Origin: Blattabacterium cuenoti
GTDB taxonomy: Bacteria; Bacteroidota; Bacteroidia; Flavobacteriales; Blattabacteriaceae
NCBI RefSeq assembly: GCF_014252275.1
Contig: NZ_CP059214.1
Span: 403,637 to 467,636, forward strand
Direction of reading: 5' to 3'
DNA length: 64,000 bases
Numbering within the stretch: position 1 is the first letter of the stretch; each line of letters starts with the position of its first letter. Of the stretch, positions 3,399-63,269 are shown piece by piece. The notes beneath the pieces were generated by a model. That model did not search any database. It had not been told where the DNA came from and saw nothing but the letters and a program-made list of their open reading frames with translations. Position numbers and translations under genes: made by a program.

Positions 3399-3505
3399 TT
3401 TTTAACTGATTAACTATTGTAACATTAATTAAAATTAAATAAAAGTATTTTTTTAAAAAAAATTAATTGTATTATATTACAATAATTGATTAAAATTTTT
3501 TTCGT

Positions 3506-5131
3506 ATTACTCATTTTAATTTCATTGAAAAAATTATAGAGAAAGACATCAAAGATGGATTTCCTTTAGAAAAAATAAAATTTCGTTTTCCTCCGGAACC
3601 AAATGGATATTTACATATTGGTCACGTTAAAGCAATATGTTTAAATTTCGAATTAGGAAGAAAATATAAAGCTCCAGTTTATTTACGATTTGATGATACC
3701 AATCCTACTGTAGAAAATGAAAAATATGTAAAATCAATAAAAAAAGATTTGTTATTTTTAGGATTTCGGTGGAATAAGGAAAGTTATGCTTCTGATTATT
3801 TTCAAAATCTTTATGAATGGGCAATAAAATTAATCAAAAAAGGATTTGCATATATTGATACGCAATCAAAATATGATATAAAATTTCAAAGAAAAGATTC
3901 TTTTGAATCTGGAATTAATAGTATTAATAGAAAAAGATCTATAAATGAAAACTTAGATCTTTTTGAAAAAATGAAAAATGGATTTTTTCGAGAAGGAACA
4001 TGTGTTTTGAGAGCTAAAATAGATATGAGTTCTCCAAACATAAATATGAGGGATCCAATAATGTATAGAATTCTTTATAAAACACATCACAAAACCGGAT
4101 CAAAATGGTGTATTTATCCTACATATGATTGGACACATGGTCAATGTGATTATATTGAACAAATATCACATTCTTTATGTTCATTAGAATTTGAAAATAA
4201 AAGACCTTTGTATAATTGGTTTTTAGAGAAAATTAATCTTAATACATCAAAAATAAGACCAAAACAAATAGAATTTTCAAGACTTAATATAAGTAATACT
4301 GTAACAAGTAAAAGAAAAATTCAATATTTAATTAAAAAAAATATTATCTATTCTTGGGATGATCCACGTATACTAACAATATGCGGATTAAAAAAAAGAG
4401 GATATCCCTCTATTGCTTTAAAAGATTTCATTCATAAAATAGGAATTACAAAAAGAAATAGTATGATTGATATCTCTTTATTGGAATATTGGGGAAGAAA
4501 ACATTTAAACAAAATTTCTACAAGAGTAATGGTAGTATTAAACCCTGTTAAAATCATTATTGATAATTATTGTTCAAATAAAATAGAATGGATCAAATTA
4601 AAAAATAATCCTGAGGATAAACATTCAGGAATACGAAATGTTCCATTTTCTAAAAATATATATATTGAAGAATCAGATTTTTTAGAAGAAAAAAAAGACA
4701 ATTTTTTTCGTTTATTTATTGGGAATAAGGTAAGATTAAAAGGATCTTATGTTATTGAAGCAAAATATGTTGTAAAAAATGAAAAAGGAAAAATTAAAGA
4801 AATCCACTGTAATTATTTTTCAAAAACAGAATCTATAAAAAAAATTAGAAGTACTTTACATTGGGTTTCGATTCCTCATATTTTTCCTATAAAAATAAAT
4901 ATATATAAAACATTATTTTTGAAAAAAAAAAATAATAAACTACTCGATGAGTATGAAATCAATCCAAATTCCAAAAAAACTATTATAGGATATGCAGAAC
5001 CATTTTTAAAAAAAGTTAAAAAAGGAGATTATTTACAATTTCAACGAATCGGATATTTCTGTGTAGAAGAAGTACATAATGGAAAAATCATTTTAAATAA
5101 AACATTATCTATCAAAAATAAATGGGAATAA
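3506..5131 (+). CDS. glnS: glutaminyl-tRNA synthetase, apparently with a non-canonical start codon
   Basis: Class I aminoacyl-tRNA synthetase charging tRNA-Gln. The catalytic HIGH motif (GYLHIGHVKA) lies at 3605-3634, and the KMSKS-like loop reads VTSKR where family members have VMSKR. The anticodon-binding beta-barrels follow, to the stop at 5131. The reading frame is continuous with the family N-terminus (NFIEKIIEKDIKDGFPLEKI), but that frame opens only after TAA at 3491-3493. It then contains no ATG, GTG or TTG until TTG at 3749, which lies well inside the catalytic domain. I place the start at ATT 3506, giving about 541 residues, normal for GlnS; ATT 3524 is another choice. A shift in the seven-T run at 3496-3502 from TTG 3486 is a less likely alternative. 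It converges with rpoC, leaving six bases between the two stops. Confidence 0.85.
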   Translation: MTHFNFIEKIIEKDIKDGFPLEKIKFRFPPEPNGYLHIGHVKAICLNFELGRKYKAPVYLRFDDTNPTVENEKYVKSIKKDLLFLGFRWNKESYASDYFQNLYEWAIKLIKKGFAYIDTQSKYDIKFQRKDSFESGINSINRKRSINENLDLFEKMKNGFFREGTCVLRAKIDMSSPNINMRDPIMYRILYKTHHKTGSKWCIYPTYDWTHGQCDYIEQISHSLCSLEFENKRPLYNWFLEKINLNTSKIRPKQIEFSRLNISNTVTSKRKIQYLIKKNIIYSWDDPRILTICGLKKRGYPSIALKDFIHKIGITKRNSMIDISLLEYWGRKHLNKISTRVMVVLNPVKIIIDNYCSNKIEWIKLKNNPEDKHSGIRNVPFSKNIYIEESDFLEEKKDNFFRLFIGNKVRLKGSYVIEAKYVVKNEKGKIKEIHCNYFSKTESIKKIRSTLHWVSIPHIFPIKINIYKTLFLKKKNNKLLDEYEINPNSKKTIIGYAEPFLKKVKKGDYLQFQRIGYFCVEEVHNGKIILNKTLSIKNKWE

Positions 5132-53929: not shown

Positions 53930-54203
53930 ATGAAAGAAAAAAAAAAAAATATATAGGTTATCTGATCTGAATAAAGGAGATGTTGGAATTATTCATGGGT
54001 ATAAAAATGAAGATGTACCAATAAAATTAATAGAGTTAGGAGTGTTACCAGGAATCAAAATTGAAGTATTATTCGTTTCTATTTTTCATGATCCATTATG
54101 TATAAAATGTGAAAAATCCTATTTAATTTTTAGAAGAAAAGAAGCAAAAAATATTTTAATAAAACCTATTATTAAAAATAAAAAATTATGCAAGGAAGAT
54201 TGA
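53930..54203 (+). CDS. feoA: ferrous iron transport protein A, frame broken at an A13 tract
   Basis: Small cytosolic SH3-like partner of FeoB. From 53955 the frame reads RLSDLNKGDVGIIHGYKNED and continues through IELGVLPGIKIEV, DPLCIKCEKSYLIF and RRKEAKNILI to TGA 54201-54203, a clear FeoA. It has no ATG in that frame. The ATG at 53930 is in another frame, and the two are separated by a run of 13 A (53937-53949). Deleting a single A joins them into a 90-residue protein. Slippage of RNA polymerase or ribosomes on the A tract could supply this; otherwise ATA 53949 would have to serve as start. It overlaps feoB by 16 bases. Confidence 0.8.
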
Positions 54204-56296
54204 TAAAATTAGCCCTTTTAGGAAATCCTAATGTAGGAAAAACTTCTTTGTTTAATAAACTTACAGGACTTAATCAAAAAATAGGGAATTACTTAGGAGT
54301 TACAGTAGAAAAAAAAATAGGATTTTTTTGTGATCAAAAAATAAGCTATCAAATAATAGACTTACCAGGAATTTATAGTATATATCCTTCATCTGAAAAT
54401 GAAGAAATCATTAGTACATTCTTATTGAATCAAAAGATAAAGGATCATCCAGATTATATTCTTTTTGTTGTTGATGCTTCTAACATAAAAAAAAGTCTCC
54501 TTTTATTTAGACAAGTACAAGATCTTGGTTTTTCCATGTTCATTGTTATAAATATGTTAGATGAAGCTAAAAAAAAGGGAATATATATTAACATAAAAAA
54601 ATTAGAAATAATTGTTAATACAAAAATTACTCTTATAAATGCTAGAAATGGAGATGGAATCCAAGAAATGAAGAATCAATTAAAAATTCTAATTCAAAAA
54701 AAAATTCGATCATTACGAATAAAATCTTTATCCTTTTCTATAAAAAAACAATATTTTCATGCTATTCAAGAAGTCAAAAATCATTTTCATATAAAGAATC
54801 CTTATGAAGCTTGGTATCATTTAGCATGTGACAAAAAATTTGTCAAACAAAATCCTTTGTTAAAGGAGATTCGAAAAAAGTATAAAATTATTTCAAAAAG
54901 ATTACAAGTCAAAGAAATATTAGATAGATATGAAGAAATTGGAAATATATATTCTAAAACTGTTTCTGAATTTATTTCTGAAAAAACGAAAAATCGTTTA
55001 GAATTTTTAAAAAAATTAGATAAATCACTAATTCTACATCCTTTTCTAGGATATATAGTATTTTTCTTTTTATTATTTTTTGTTTTTCAATTGATATTTT
55101 TTTGGTCAGAATTTCCTGTAAGGTTTATTAAATTTTTTTTTTCTTACATACAACAAAATGTAGAAAATATTTATACGGGTCCATTAAGTAATTTTTTTTT
55201 ACAAGGATTTTTGCCAGGAATCAATACTATTATTAGTTTTATTCCACAAATTTTTATTTTATTGTTTTTCCTTCTTCTTATGGAAGAAAGTGGATATATA
55301 AGTCGAGTTATATTTTTAATGGATAAAATTATGCGTCCATTTGGTTTAAATGGAAAAAGTATTGTTCCTCTTATTTCCGCTATTTCTTGTTCTATTCCTG
55401 CAATTATTTCATCGAGACATATAGAAAATTACCGAGATCGTTTAATTACTATCCTTGTAACTCCTTTTATGACTTGTTCAGCAAAGTTACCAATTTATAC
55501 TATTATCATATCTTTAATCATACCAAACATCAAATGGGGATTTTTTCAATTGAGAGGGATCATATTAATGATGATGTATATTTTAGGTGTAATTACATCT
55601 CTTTGTGTTGCTATGATATTTCATAAATATTTAAAAAAAAGTTATGATAGTCATTTAATTATGGAAATTCCTACTTATAAAATTCCTGTATTAAAAAATA
55701 TTTTCATTAGTTTATGGTTACATATTAAATCTTTTATTTTAAATACGGGAAAGATTATTTTATTAATTAATGTATTGATTTGGGTATTAGGAACTTTTGG
55801 TCCTTCTGAAAATAATTTTTTTAAGAAAAATCATTCTTTTTTATATCCTATAAATATAGAAGAAAGAAAATTAGAAAATTCTTATTTAGGACTGTTTGGA
55901 AAAAAAATAGAACCTATCATTTCTCCTTTAGGATATGATTGGAAGATTGGAATAGGATTATTATCTTCTTTCGTAGCAAGAGAGGTTTTTGTAAGTACTA
56001 TGAATTCCCTTTATAAAATAGAAGGACCAAAAAATATCAATAAAAATGAAATGCATAAAAATATTTATAATAATAAGTTTGTTTGCAACGTTCCTACAGG
56101 AGTTTCTTTATTATTTTTTTATGCATTTTCTATGCAATGTATGAGTACTGTATCAATCATGAGAAAAGAAACAAAGTCTTGGAAATGGCCAATTACACAA
56201 TTTGTTTTAATGACATTACTAGCATATGTATTTTCTTTTATAAGTTATCAAATACTCATAAAATTCATGGATCATCATGGGAATATATCATTATAG
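54188..56296 (+). CDS. feoB: ferrous iron transport protein B
   Basis: Inner-membrane Fe2+ transporter with an N-terminal G domain. G1 is [19 protein letters not shown]2 lies around LGVTVEKK, G3 is DLPGIYSI, and G4 is NMLDEAKK. The membrane part has two Gate motifs: ISAISCSIPAIISSRHI (first) and FVAREVFVSTM (second). About eight hydrophobic helices are visible. At 702 residues it is complete. The start overlaps feoA. A possible small Cys-rich partner begins at its stop. Confidence 0.97.
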   Translation: MQGRLIKLALLGNPNVGKTSLFNKLTGLNQKIGNYLGVTVEKKIGFFCDQKISYQIIDLPGIYSIYPSSENEEIISTFLLNQKIKDHPDYILFVVDASNIKKSLLLFRQVQDLGFSMFIVINMLDEAKKKGIYINIKKLEIIVNTKITLINARNGDGIQEMKNQLKILIQKKIRSLRIKSLSFSIKKQYFHAIQEVKNHFHIKNPYEAWYHLACDKKFVKQNPLLKEIRKKYKIISKRLQVKEILDRYEEIGNIYSKTVSEFISEKTKNRLEFLKKLDKSLILHPFLGYIVFFFLLFFVFQLIFFWSEFPVRFIKFFFSYIQQNVENIYTGPLSNFFLQGFLPGINTIISFIPQIFILLFFLLLMEESGYISRVIFLMDKIMRPFGLNGKSIVPLISAISCSIPAIISSRHIENYRDRLITILVTPFMTCSAKLPIYTIIISLIIPNIKWGFFQLRGIILMMMYILGVITSLCVAMIFHKYLKKSYDSHLIMEIPTYKIPVLKNIFISLWLHIKSFILNTGKIILLINVLIWVLGTFGPSENNFFKKNHSFLYPINIEERKLENSYLGLFGKKIEPIISPLGYDWKIGIGLLSSFVAREVFVSTMNSLYKIEGPKNINKNEMHKNIYNNKFVCNVPTGVSLLFFYAFSMQCMSTVSIMRKETKSWKWPITQFVLMTLLAYVFSFISYQILIKFMDHHGNISL

Positions 56297-58033: not shown

Positions 58034-59038
58034 ATGAGAATTATTACGGATAAAAATCAACATTCTATACGTATAGATAAATTTTTAATGAACAAACTAC
58101 AAAACATCAGTCGAAATCAGATACAAAAATTTTTAAAGTATGGAAATATTTATGTCAATAATCAAATAATTAAAAAAAATTACAAAATAAAACCGTTTGA
58201 TTCTATCGAATGCAAATTTTTTTCTTCTATAAAAAATGTGTTAGAACTAGAACAAAAAAATCTCCATGAGAAAATAATGAATAATATGAATATTATTTTT
58301 TATGAGGATAAAGATATTATTATTGTAAATAAACCATCTAACATGGTAGTTCACCCTGGATGTGGAAACGAAAAAAATACGCTGATACATTATATGATAC
58401 AACACCATCCTTATTTATCTAGATTAGATCGATTCGGATTAATTCACCGATTAGATAAAAATACTACTGGATTATTGGTTTTTGCTAAAAATATAGATAC
58501 TCAAAAATTTTTGAAAAAACAATTTCAATTAAAAATCATTAGAAGAAAATATATTGCATTAGTATGGGGGGATTTGAAAAATGAAAAAGGACATATAAAA
58601 GGATTTATTGGAAGAAATCCAAAAAATAGAAAAAAAATGATGGTATTTCCAGATAATAAAGAAATGAAAAAAAATAAAAAGTATTCTGTTACACATTATA
58701 AAGTTTTAGAAAGATTCAAAGATTTATATTTAACATGTGTTTCTTGTGAATTAGAAACAGGAAGAACTCATCAAATAAGAGCACATTTTAAACACTTAGG
58801 AAATCCTATCTTTGGTGATGAAGATTATGGAGGTAGAAAAATTTTTATGAAAAAAAGATATAAAAAAAAATACATTAAATTTTTTGATGATTGTTTGAAT
58901 CTATTAAAAAGACAAGCATTACATGCAATTTCTCTTCATTTAATCCATCCAAAATATGGAAAATGTTTTTTTTCTTGTCCTATTCCAAATGATTTTGATT
59001 ATGTTATTCAACAATGTCAACAATTTTTATTACAATAA
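58034..59038 (+). CDS. rluD: ribosomal large subunit pseudouridine synthase (RluD family)
   Basis: Makes pseudouridine in 23S rRNA. The N-terminal S4 RNA-binding domain (RIDKFLMNKLQNISRNQIQK) is followed by the RluA-type catalytic domain. It has NKPSNMVVHPGCG, the catalytic-Asp motif IHRLDKNTTGLLVFAK, and ELETGRTHQIRAHFKHLGNP. At 334 residues it is complete. RluD specificity is inferred from the S4 domain and neighbourhood. It overlaps the 3' end of mgtE by nine bases, tail to tail. Confidence 0.93.
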   Translation: MRIITDKNQHSIRIDKFLMNKLQNISRNQIQKFLKYGNIYVNNQIIKKNYKIKPFDSIECKFFSSIKNVLELEQKNLHEKIMNNMNIIFYEDKDIIIVNKPSNMVVHPGCGNEKNTLIHYMIQHHPYLSRLDRFGLIHRLDKNTTGLLVFAKNIDTQKFLKKQFQLKIIRRKYIALVWGDLKNEKGHIKGFIGRNPKNRKKMMVFPDNKEMKKNKKYSVTHYKVLERFKDLYLTCVSCELETGRTHQIRAHFKHLGNPIFGDEDYGGRKIFMKKRYKKKYIKFFDDCLNLLKRQALHAISLHLIHPKYGKCFFSCPIPNDFDYVIQQCQQFLLQ

Positions 59039-60413
59039 AGTTCCATGCAAAAGAGTATAAGATATTGAAAAATATATAATTAACCCTATTACATCAACAA
59101 TAGTTGCAACAAAAGGAGCAGATGAAGTAGCTGGATCTCCCTTAAATTTTTTAATAATAAAAGGCAACATTGATCCACTCAATGTTCCCCATAAAACTAT
59201 ACCAATAAGAGAAAAAAAAACAGAAATTCCAACAAGAATCCAATGTGGCCCATAATTAAATAATTTTGCATTATGCCAAACAACAACACGTAAAAATCCT
59301 GTTAATCCTAAAATACTTCCTAAGAAAAATCCACAAACAATTTCTCTTTTCATTACGATCCACCAATCTTTTATTTTTACTTCTCCTAAAGCCATAGCTT
59401 GAATAATTAAACTAGATGCTTGAGATCCACTATTTCCTCCACTTGATACTACTAAAGGAATAAATAAAGCAAGAACAACCGCTCTTTCTATTACACTTGA
59501 AAAGTTTTGCATGACTGTTGTTGTAAACATTTCTCCTATAAAAAGAAGTATTAACCAGCCTGCTCTTTTCTTTATCAAACTATATAATGGAATATTCATG
59601 TAAGATTGATTTAAAACTTCCACTCCTCCTATTTTTTGAAAATCTTCCCTATAATTTTCGTTTAATACCCAAAGTATATCATCTACAGTAACTATTCCAA
59701 GTAAATAATTGTAATGATCTACAACAGGTAATGAAACACGATTGTTCATGGAAAATATTTTGGTTGCCTCTTCTTCTGTATCAGTAACCTTTAGTGAAAC
59801 AGTAGATTTTTTTTTCATGATATAAGAGACTTTTGTTTTTGGATCAACCAATAAAAATTCTTTAATTTTAATATCGTCTATTAGTTTTCCTTTTTCATCT
59901 ATGACATAAATAATCTCTATAAAATCACTGTTTTTTACTTCTTTTCGTATATGATCTAATACATCTTGGACTTTCCAAGTTTTTTTTACTGCAAGATAGT
60001 AGGGAATCATCAATCGACCAACACTATTTTCTGGATAACCCAAAGATACCAACGTTTTTTTTTTTTCTTCTGGATTCAAATATTTAATTAAATCTTTGAG
60101 GAAATGATTGGGAAGATTTTCTAAAAAAGAAACACGATCATCTACAGATAGATTATTCAATAATTCCATTTTCTTAATCAAAGGTAATTGATCTATAACT
60201 TTTTTTTTAATAGTAAGATCTAATATTCTAAATATAGAAATAGATTTATAAAGATTTAATAATCTAAATATTTTTCCAACAAGAATAGGATTTTTATGAA
60301 TTATTTTAATTAATTCATCGATATTTTTGTTATTTAAAAATTTTTCATTTAAAAAATCATTTTTATTCTCATTAAACTTTTTTTTTTTTTTTAAAAAAAT
60401 TATTTTTAATCAT
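59030..60413 (-). CDS. mgtE: magnesium transporter MgtE, frame broken at an A15 tract
   Basis: Mg2+ channel of the inner membrane. The cytosolic N domain (ILDLTIKKKVIDQL, LSVDDRVSFLENLPNHFL), two CBS domains (PVVDHYNYLLGIVTVDDI), and the five-helix membrane domain with GGNSGSQASSLI and the TIVDVIGLIIYF signature are all present. Much of the N domain lies upstream of the first in-frame start (TTG 60181). The N-domain frame is open back to TGA 60412-60410 without any ATG. An ATG at 60413 in another frame is joined to it if one A is dropped from a run of 15 A (60378-60392 on the plus strand as T). This gives 460 residues, the normal size. The overlap with rluD is nine bases, converging. Confidence 0.82.
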
Positions 60414-60476
60414 TTATCTCCTTGTTCTAATTAAGAAAATATTAAAATTACATAATAAAATTTATTGTAATTTTTT

Positions 60477-63269
60477 ATGAAATATGTAAAAAAAATGGAT
60501 ACAGAATATAATTTTAGAAAAATAGAAAAATATTGGCAAATATATTGGGAAAAACATCATGTATTTCTAGGAGAAGAAAACAATAAAAAAAAATATTATA
60601 TACTGAATATGTTCCCATATCCATCAGGATATGGACTACATGTAGGACATTGTTTAGGGTATATATCTTCGGATATATATGCAAGATATAAAAGAATAAA
60701 AGGATATAATGTATTACATCCTATTGGATTTGATTCTTTTGGTTTACCTGCAGAACAATATGCTATTCAAACAGGAAAGCATCCATTAGATACAATTAAA
60801 GAGAATGAAAAAAAATATACTAATCAAATCAAAAAAATTGGGATATCGTTTAATTGGAATAGAAAAATAAGCACTAGTTCTCCTCAATATTATCGTTGGA
60901 CTCAATGGATGTTTATTCAAATTTTCCATTCTTGGTATGATAAAAATTACGAATCTGCTAAACCAATACATTTACTTATTCAAGAATTTAATCAACATGG
61001 AAATGTGTTAGTTAATGCTATAACTTCATATCAAGAAAAATTTAGTAGTACTACTTGGAAAAAATTCAATGTTCAAGAAAAAGAAAATATATTGCAGAAT
61101 TATCGATTAGCTTATTTATGTCAAAATATTGTAAACTGGTGTCCTTATCTTGGTACTGTTTTAGCAAATGAAGAAATAAAAAATGGAAGAAGCATAAGAG
61201 GAGGATATCCAGTTTATAAAAAAAATATGCTTCAATGGCATATAAGAATTAGTGCTTATGCAGAACGATTATTAAAAGGGTTAGATAATATTAAATGTTC
61301 TGATTCTTTAAAAAAAATTCAAATTCATTGGATAGGAAAGAAACATTGTTTTTCTATTTTTTTCAAAGTACGTCTTCATGAAAGTGAAGAAAAAATCATT
61401 GAATGTCTTCTTTTTGAACCTGAAAAAATATTCGGTATTACCTTTATCATTTTATCTCCATATCATCCTTTTTCAAAAAGGATAAGCACATCCCATAAAG
61501 ATAAAAAAAATGTATCAAAATATCTTTTAACCCATTTTCTCATAAAAAATAATTTTTCAAAAAGTATATCTGGAGTTTTTACAGGAAACCATGTTATACA
61601 TCCATTTACTAAAAAAAAAATTCCTATTTATATTAGTAATTTTTTTCCTTTAGATCATAGAACAAAATCCATGATAGGCATTCCAGGACATGAAAAAAGA
61701 AGTTACCAATTTGCAAAAAAATTTGGATTAAAATCCGTTAAAGTAGTGAAATTTTGCATAAAAGAAAATAAAAACATATGTATAAGATCTCATTTTTTAA
61801 ATGGACTTTCCTTGAATCAAGCGAAAAAAAAAGTCGTAAAAATTTTACGAGAATCTCTTATTCCAAAAAAAAGTTATAAAATTCATGATGCTATTTTTTC
61901 TAGACAAAGATATTGGGGAGAACCTATTCCAATTTATTTCGAAAATAACATCCCTAAAACTATTCCTGTTGATTATTTACCATTACTTCTTCCAAAAAAG
62001 AATCATTTTAATCATGAAAAATTACTAAAGAAATGGGCTTGGGATAAAAAGAAAAAAAGAGTAGTTGAAACCCATTTAATTGATCATCAAACAATCTTTC
62101 CTATAGAAACTAGTACTATGCCTAGTTGGGCAGGTTCAAGTTGGTATTTTTTGCGGTATATGGATGTTGAAAACAATAACTTTTTTATAGACAAAAAAAA
62201 AGAAATGTATTGGAAAAATATTGATTTATATATTGGAGGATCAGAACATAGTACTGGACATTTAATTTATTCTCGATTTTGGCACAAATTTTTAAAAGAT
62301 AGAGGTTGGGTACAAACAGAAGAACCATTTAAAAAAATATTAAATCAAGGAATGATTTTAAGTTATTCTTTTACTATATTGAAAGTGATTGGAAAAAATA
62401 TATTTGTATCTTATAATCTTAAAAATCGAAAAAAAACATTTTTCTTATTTCAAGAACTTTATATCAGTCATACTTGTATAAAAGAGAAAGATAAGTTAGA
62501 TATAAATCAATTTAAATATCATTATCCCGAATTTTACAATCCGATATTTATTCTCAAAAATGGAGAATTTTTTTGCAAAAGACAATTAGAAAAAATGTCT
62601 AAATCAAAATACAATGTAATTAATCCTGAATTAATTTGCGAACAATATGGAGCGGATACATTTCGTATGTATGCAATGTTTTTAGGTCCAATCGTTCAGT
62701 CTAAACCTTGGAGTTTACAAAAAATCATTGGAATAAAAAATTTCTTAAGAAAATTATGGAATTTATTTCATAAAAATGGAATTTTTCAAGTAAATGAAGA
62801 AAATCCAACTAATGAAGAATTTAAAATTTTACATACTTTAATCAAAAAAATTGAAAAAAAAATACAATTATTTTCCTTTAATACATGTATCAGTCATTTT
62901 ATGATTATGGTAAATCAATTAATTTTTTTAAAATGCAATAAAAGAAAGATCCTAGAACCCCTGATTCAATTAATTTCTCCTTTTGCTCCTCATATATCTG
63001 AAGAATTATGGATGAAATTGGGGAAAAAAAAATCTATTATTTATTTTCCTATACCTTCTCTTCAAGAACAATACCTTTTAAATGATAAACAAATAACATA
63101 TAAAATTATGATAAACGGAAAATTCAAATTTTTGGAAAAATTTGATAAAAAACTTAGTATGAAACAAATAGAAAAAAACATCCTAAATCATAAAAAAATA
63201 AAAAATACAGAAAAAAGAATAAAAAAATTAGTAATCATCCCAAAAAAAATAATTAATATTTTATATTGA
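60477..63269 (+). CDS. leuS: leucyl-tRNA synthetase
   Basis: Class I synthetase for tRNA-Leu. The HIGH motif is in GYGLHVGHCLGYIS, near residue 60. The CP1 editing domain occupies the middle, the STMPSWAGSSWYFLRYM block follows, and the KMSKS loop is KMSKSKYNV. The anticodon-binding helices and the C-terminal domain run to residue 930. ATG 60477 gives six extra residues before MDTEYNF; ATG 60495 is the family-like start. Divergent from mgtE with about 63 bases between. Confidence 0.97.
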   Translation: MKYVKKMDTEYNFRKIEKYWQIYWEKHHVFLGEENNKKKYYILNMFPYPSGYGLHVGHCLGYISSDIYARYKRIKGYNVLHPIGFDSFGLPAEQYAIQTGKHPLDTIKENEKKYTNQIKKIGISFNWNRKISTSSPQYYRWTQWMFIQIFHSWYDKNYESAKPIHLLIQEFNQHGNVLVNAITSYQEKFSSTTWKKFNVQEKENILQNYRLAYLCQNIVNWCPYLGTVLANEEIKNGRSIRGGYPVYKKNMLQWHIRISAYAERLLKGLDNIKCSDSLKKIQIHWIGKKHCFSIFFKVRLHESEEKIIECLLFEPEKIFGITFIILSPYHPFSKRISTSHKDKKNVSKYLLTHFLIKNNFSKSISGVFTGNHVIHPFTKKKIPIYISNFFPLDHRTKSMIGIPGHEKRSYQFAKKFGLKSVKVVKFCIKENKNICIRSHFLNGLSLNQAKKKVVKILRESLIPKKSYKIHDAIFSRQRYWGEPIPIYFENNIPKTIPVDYLPLLLPKKNHFNHEKLLKKWAWDKKKKRVVETHLIDHQTIFPIETSTMPSWAGSSWYFLRYMDVENNNFFIDKKKEMYWKNIDLYIGGSEHSTGHLIYSRFWHKFLKDRGWVQTEEPFKKILNQGMILSYSFTILKVIGKNIFVSYNLKNRKKTFFLFQELYISHTCIKEKDKLDINQFKYHYPEFYNPIFILKNGEFFCKRQLEKMSKSKYNVINPELICEQYGADTFRMYAMFLGPIVQSKPWSLQKIIGIKNFLRKLWNLFHKNGIFQVNEENPTNEEFKILHTLIKKIEKKIQLFSFNTCISHFMIMVNQLIFLKCNKRKILEPLIQLISPFAPHISEELWMKLGKKKSIIYFPIPSLQEQYLLNDKQITYKIMINGKFKFLEKFDKKLSMKQIEKNILNHKKIKNTEKRIKKLVIIPKKIINILY

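What the first reader, a model, noticed from the sequence alone, without database searches (positions are those of the whole stretch)
59030..60413. mgtE has the same defect at an A15 tract near its start
The N domain of MgtE is coded upstream of any start codon in its frame. An ATG seven codons before an A15 run is in the wrong frame by one base; a single-A loss gives a full-length 460-residue MgtE. The longest T or A runs I noticed in this window fall here and in feoA, both right behind the start codon of a metal transport gene.
Basis: partly seen in the sequence, partly recalled or inferred. Interest (0 to 1): 0.75.

Follow-up and report, generated by a model that had tools for sequence, protein, structure and literature searches.

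The report
Magnesium transporter gene lost its start
In a cockroach's bacterial partner, the gene for a magnesium transporter has lost its ancestral start codon and sits behind a run of 15 A's that is one base out of step with the next start codon upstream; the protein still looks well preserved, so the cell probably reads it by 'slipping' on the run, as other insect symbionts do, or from an unusual start codon.

Summary
The window is Blattabacterium (561,052-bp genome G000). The mgtE frame (minus strand, 60409-59030) has no ATG/GTG/TTG before TTG 60181; ATG 60413 lies seven codons before A15 (60392-60378), and one A fewer gives exactly 460 residues. The interpretation needs correcting. Alignment with congeners shows that the run is the gene's A-rich leader and that the ancestral ATG has become AAG (60379-60377): a lost start codon, not an indel in an old coding tract. 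feoA likewise lost its ancestral TTG. MgtE shows no decay. In a 244-kb sample, G000 has four other genes frameshifted between conserved halves, all at A11-A17, none at 435 shorter tracts (A8-A10). Sister genomes show the same in atpH (A12, T10), mgtE (A10) and, right behind the start, nth (A10). This matches the poly(A) frameshifts with transcriptional slippage known from Buchnera and Blochmannia. Best reading: AUG 60413 plus slippage (about 0.5). Main rival: AUA/AUU initiation in frame (about 0.25), because glnS in this genus starts at a conserved AUA and dnaB here has only AUU/AUA. Sequencing error or recent decay remain possible. No read or RNA data were available.

The parts
59030..60409 (-). 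mgtE reading frame, stop to stop (459 codons plus TAA 59032-59030); N domain, CBS, transmembrane MgtE domain
   Evidence: TIGR00400, 325 bits; Pfam MgtE_N, CBS, MgtE
60378..60392 (-). A15 run (T15 on the plus strand), the former A-rich leader of mgtE
   Evidence: longest A/T run in the window
60377..60379 (-). AAG at the position of the ancestral ATG start codon
   Evidence: 43 of 48 aligned sequences have ATG in this column, the window alone AAG
60372..60413 (-). Upstream ATG (60413-60411) and the 13-residue ORF it opens; runs into the A15 one base out of the MgtE frame
60410..60412 (-). TGA stop that bounds the MgtE frame upstream (overlaps the ATG)
60398..60403 (-). In-frame ATA (60403-60401) and ATT (60400-60398), candidate non-AUG starts that need no slip
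60179..60181 (-). First canonical in-frame start codon, TTG; judged unlikely to be used
60441..60450 (-). TAATTTTAAT, promoter-like stretch (GTAATTTTAAT) that recurs by eye upstream of mgtE in several congeners
   Evidence: by eye; promoter role is inference
53930..54203 (+). feoA: ATG 53930, A13 (53937-53949), then the FeoA frame whose ancestral TTG start is now TAT; in-frame ATA 53949. Same layout as mgtE

Best explanation
mgtE in this Blattabacterium has lost its ancestral ATG: the codon just behind the A-rich leader is now AAG (shown). Translation most likely starts at AUG 60413 upstream, which is out of frame in the genomic A15 version. RNA polymerase slips on the 15-A tract and makes a mixed pool of transcripts; those with one A fewer (or two more) join AUG 60413 to the MgtE frame and give a 460-residue transporter with a foreign N terminus, while the rest make a short peptide (inferred). 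The gene is probably functional but expressed at reduced efficiency. The state arose by drift in an AT-rich, clonal endosymbiont and is tolerated because slippage partly restores the frame. feoA has the same layout.
For: Start loss. No decay of the protein or of the N segment upstream of TTG 60181 (pN/pS against G009 0.20 for the body and 0.43 for the N segment, within the range of other pairs). In a 244-kb sample of this genome four conserved genes are frameshifted between intact halves and all four junctions are poly-A tracts (atpH A17, GHMP kinase A11, trmH A11, rnhA A12), with none at 435 tracts of A8-A10. Same kind of lesion in other genomes: mgtE of G032 (A10), atpH of G027 (A12) and G006 (T10), nth of G009 (ATG plus four codons before an out-of-frame A10, the same layout). 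Published precedent: 12-50% of transcripts corrected at such tracts in Buchnera and Blochmannia (PMC5009743); eight such genes in Blochmannia vafer (PMC3017870).
Against: No RNA or read data. The upstream ATG is not ancestral. The AAGGAG before it is no support, because genes of this genome hardly use Shine-Dalgarno sites (0-1 of 173 with AGGAG). Its context score is only at the 19th percentile of real starts, no better than ATA/ATT. In-frame AUA/AUU would need no slip at all.
Confidence: 0.5

Rival explanations
1. Non-AUG initiation: the ribosome starts at AUA 60403 or AUU 60400, which are in the MgtE frame with A15 as it stands. No slip is needed and there is no frame defect. In feoA the start would be AUA 53949.
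For: glnS has no canonical start between the upstream stop and its conserved N terminus in 23 of 30 loci, and a conserved ATA at the start position (23 of 27). dnaB in this genome has no ATG in any frame near its start, only ATT/ATA in frame. infC lacks a canonical start here too.
Against: ATA/ATT codons are so common in this genome that finding them in frame says little. In mgtE they lie 7-8 codons upstream of the native start, not at it. AUA/AUU are weak initiators elsewhere and IF3, which counters them, is present. The layout ATG / few codons / out-of-frame A run in mgtE, feoA and G009 nth would be coincidence.
Confidence: 0.25
2. Assembly or base-calling error: the true run has another length, or the T of ATG directly behind the run was misread as A, so the gene is ordinary.
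For: Long homopolymers are error-prone. G003 shows A14-TG at the same place, so a single misread base would give the window's sequence.
Against: About two dozen coding tracts of A11 or longer are in frame in the sample, including A13 and A15, and further ones elsewhere in the genome. feoA's start change (TTG to TAT) does not touch the end of its run. The same kind of lesion occurs in other assemblies.
Confidence: 0.12
3. Early pseudogene: the start was lost recently and mgtE is no longer made.
For: The genome is among the smaller ones of the genus, and gene loss is ongoing in such symbionts (general knowledge).
Against: 459 codons open, no rate increase; mgtE kept in 49 of 49 genomes; housekeeping genes such as atpH show the same kind of lesion.
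Confidence: 0.1
4. Translation starts at TTG 60181 and makes a 383-residue MgtE with a truncated N domain.
For: It is the first canonical in-frame start.
Against: Context at the 6th percentile of real starts. The codon at this column is mostly TCT/TCA/CCA in other genomes, none ATG/GTG/TTG. It removes about half of the MgtE_N match. The segment upstream keeps conservation typical of the genus.
Confidence: 0.03

Closest known systems
Poly(A)-tract frameshifts rescued by transcriptional slippage in Buchnera and Blochmannia (Tamas et al. 2008; Wernegreen et al. 2010, both cited via PMC3017870 and PMC5009743)
   Same: AT-rich insect endosymbiont; otherwise intact gene out of frame at a long A tract; several such genes per genome; no rate increase
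   Different: Here the tract is the A-rich leader between a non-ancestral upstream AUG and a lost native start codon; genus is Bacteroidota; no transcript data
Non-AUG initiation (AUU/AUA), as at infC
   Same: Genes without a canonical start read from near-cognate codons; glnS and dnaB here
   Different: For mgtE only a candidate; ATA/ATT are not at the native start position
Phase-variable homopolymer (contingency) loci
   Same: Homopolymer near a start codon, frame depends on its length
   Different: Ordinary transport gene, no surface or defence role, no population variation tested; a drift origin fits better

Membership tests
Poly(A) frameshift with slippage rescue | Single frame break located in a long A/T tract with intact, conserved frames around it | tested here: met
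   the 5' side is a non-ancestral leader, not conserved coding sequence, so met for the MgtE side only
Poly(A) frameshift with slippage rescue | Gene under purifying selection without rate increase | tested here: met
Poly(A) frameshift with slippage rescue | Mixed-length transcripts that restore the frame | not testable with these tools
   no RNA data
Poly(A) frameshift with slippage rescue | Frameshift kept over time in related strains | tested here: inconclusive
   No congener shares the window's lesion; nearest genome is 84% identical in the query protein
MgtE magnesium transporter | N domain, CBS and transmembrane MgtE domain in order | tested here: met
Non-AUG (AUA/AUU) start | Near-cognate codon conserved at the start position with no canonical start available | tested here: inconclusive
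   Met by glnS; in mgtE ATA/ATT are in frame but not shared with relatives
Phase-variable contingency locus | Run length varies within a population and switches expression | not testable with these tools
   single consensus genome

The most novel reading that the evidence does not exclude
Blattabacterium tolerates loss of AUG start codons on a noticeable scale. Some genes are kept alive by an upstream AUG plus polymerase slippage on the A-rich leader that these bacteria use in place of a Shine-Dalgarno site; others (glnS genus-wide, dnaB here) have settled on AUA/AUU starts. A-rich leaders would then be a ready-made rescue device for lost starts.
Probability: 0.3. Interest if true: 0.65.

Novelty: new member of a known kind. 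Interest (0 to 1): 0.42.

Why it matters
It extends poly(A) frameshift tolerance, best known from the gamma-proteobacterial symbionts Buchnera and Blochmannia, to cockroach symbionts, and adds a start-codon version of it. It also warns that annotation of Blattabacterium can miss or truncate functional genes: a caller that accepts only ATG/GTG/TTG would mis-call mgtE, feoA, dnaB and glnS in this window. With 49 genomes of one genus, the balance of drift, slippage and non-AUG initiation becomes testable by RNA-seq and proteomics of the symbiont.

Tried and rejected
Mismatch-repair loss as cause of the long runs: mutS and mutL are found in 49/49 genomes. IF3 loss as cause of non-AUG starts: infC found in 49/49. 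Shine-Dalgarno support for AUG 60413: AAGGAG is there, but such sites are essentially unused in this genome. Start-context scoring to separate AUG 60413 from ATA/ATT: no discrimination. Rfam element over 60300-60600: none. Strain-level run-length variation: no genome closer than G009 (84% identity). The paper on Blattabacterium gene loss that I looked up by a DOI from memory and the two original slippage papers are not held; the latter are cited through other papers.

Full report
IDENTITY. The window is positions 403637-467636 of a single-contig 561,052-bp genome (G000). mgtE has one strong match in each of the 49 genomes (the extra weak hits cover only the CBS region).

OBSERVATION. On the minus strand: ATG 60413, six further codons, A15 (60392-60378), then GTTTAATGAG. 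Read as it stands the ORF stops after 13 residues; with one A fewer it runs 460 residues. The MgtE frame is open from an in-frame TGA at 60412-60410 and has no ATG/GTG/TTG until TTG 60181. The family is certain (TIGR00400, 325 bits; MgtE_N, CBS and MgtE domains). A15 is the longest A/T run in the window and A13 in feoA the second longest; a Markov-1 model expects 0.13 runs of 15 or more.

WHAT CHANGED. In most congeners the gene begins (A)n-ATG-TTTAATGA; in the window the same stretch is A15-G-TTTAATGA. In the codon alignment 43 of 48 sequences have ATG in that column and only the window has AAG. The run is therefore the A-rich leader usual in this genus, fused with the remains of the start codon. 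One congener (G003) has A14 directly before TG. Another (G024) has also lost the native ATG but has an in-frame ATG a few bases downstream. G032 keeps the ATG but is frameshifted inside the N domain at an A10 where most others have A11. feoA parallels mgtE: the 30 congener loci inspected have TTG (one ATG) before their conserved TTA start region, while the window has TAT there, preceded by A13 and an out-of-frame ATG 53930.

IS THE GENE DEAD? There is no sign of it. From TTG 60181 onward, identity to 40 congeners is 0.784, the highest of eight lineages compared. The segment between the old start and TTG 60181 is as conserved as in other lineages (0.51; range 0.48-0.56). pN/pS against G009 is 0.20 for the body and 0.43 for the N segment. 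A start at TTG 60181 would halve the N-domain match, is not a start codon in any other aligned sequence, and has a poor context.

IS IT ISOLATED? No. I compared 244 kb of G000 (the window plus positions 1-180000) with G009. Four conserved genes are split into two frames, each at a poly-A tract: atpH (A17; ATP synthase delta), a GHMP-kinase-like gene (A11), a trmH-like gene (A11) and rnhA (A12) (the last three names come from reading the sequence). At most 26 tracts of A11 or longer lie inside aligned coding segments in the same sample, a figure that includes the A17; 435 tracts of A8-A10 show no interior frameshift. Other genomes have lesions of their own: atpH at A12 in G027 and T10 in G006, against a single open frame in most others, and nth in G009, where ATG plus four codons precede an out-of-frame A10. 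Frame breaks confined to slippery tracts, with both sides conserved, in several lineages, are what slippage tolerance predicts; general decay predicts neither the confinement nor the length threshold. Homopolymer miscalls could mimic it, but many equally long tracts here are in frame. The literature gives 12-50% restored transcripts for such genes in Buchnera and Blochmannia (PMC5009743) and eight such genes in B. vafer (PMC3017870); a flavobacterial symbiont paper mentions the possibility too (PMC3971599). My searches of the held library found no report of it for Blattabacterium; the library is incomplete.

THE RIVAL THAT NEEDS NO SLIP. In this genus glnS has no canonical start in most loci and a conserved ATA at the start position (23 of 27). 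dnaB in this genome has only ATT/ATA near its start, and infC lacks a canonical start near its N terminus, as is common in bacteria (general knowledge). mgtE has ATA 60403 and ATT 60400 in frame; feoA has ATA 53949. Context scores do not separate these from AUG 60413. I favour AUG plus slippage for three reasons. A 15-A template is expected to give transcripts of mixed length, and AUG is a much better initiator (both general knowledge). The layout ATG / few codons / out-of-frame A run also recurs in feoA and in G009 nth. The margin is modest.

SHOWN AND INFERRED. Shown: the sequence, the frames, the start loss, the conservation, and the genome-wide and genus-wide pattern. Inferred: slippage itself, the start codon actually used, and reduced expression. 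The missing tests are DNA reads, RNA reads and N-terminal peptides.

Noticed in passing
window 3494-5129 (+), glnS, and L112-L141: glutaminyl-tRNA synthetase has no ATG/GTG/TTG near its start here and in 22 of 29 other loci; a codon ATA is conserved at the start position in 23 of 27. A genus-wide AUA start codon in an essential gene.
   Followed up: partly
window 30262-28750 (-), dnaB: Replicative helicase gene with no canonical start in its first 89 codons and no ATG in any frame just upstream; starts must be ATT or ATA.
   Followed up: partly
L089 8158-8693 (G000 68158-68693), atpH: ATP synthase delta frameshifted at A17; atpH is also frameshifted at A12 in G027 and T10 in G006.
   Followed up: partly
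G000 92201-91243, 116467-116951, 117709-116977: GHMP-kinase-like, rnhA and trmH-like genes each frameshifted at A11-A12 with conserved halves.
   Followed up: partly
L080 (G000 523858-524003), prfB: Release factor 2 gene carries an A-rich insert (A20, A20, A38, A14) with in-frame TAA codons in its normal frame; another frame is open across the insert. Expansion with paired slips, or misassembly.
   Followed up: partly
G009 54760-54830, nth: Endonuclease III gene: ATG plus four codons, then an out-of-frame A10, no canonical in-frame start; the same layout as mgtE.
   Followed up: partly
49 genomes: Number of A/T runs of 14 or more per genome varies from 0 (G021, G034, G042, G046) to 17 (G003, G032) at similar genome size, although mutS and mutL are present in all.
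   Followed up: no
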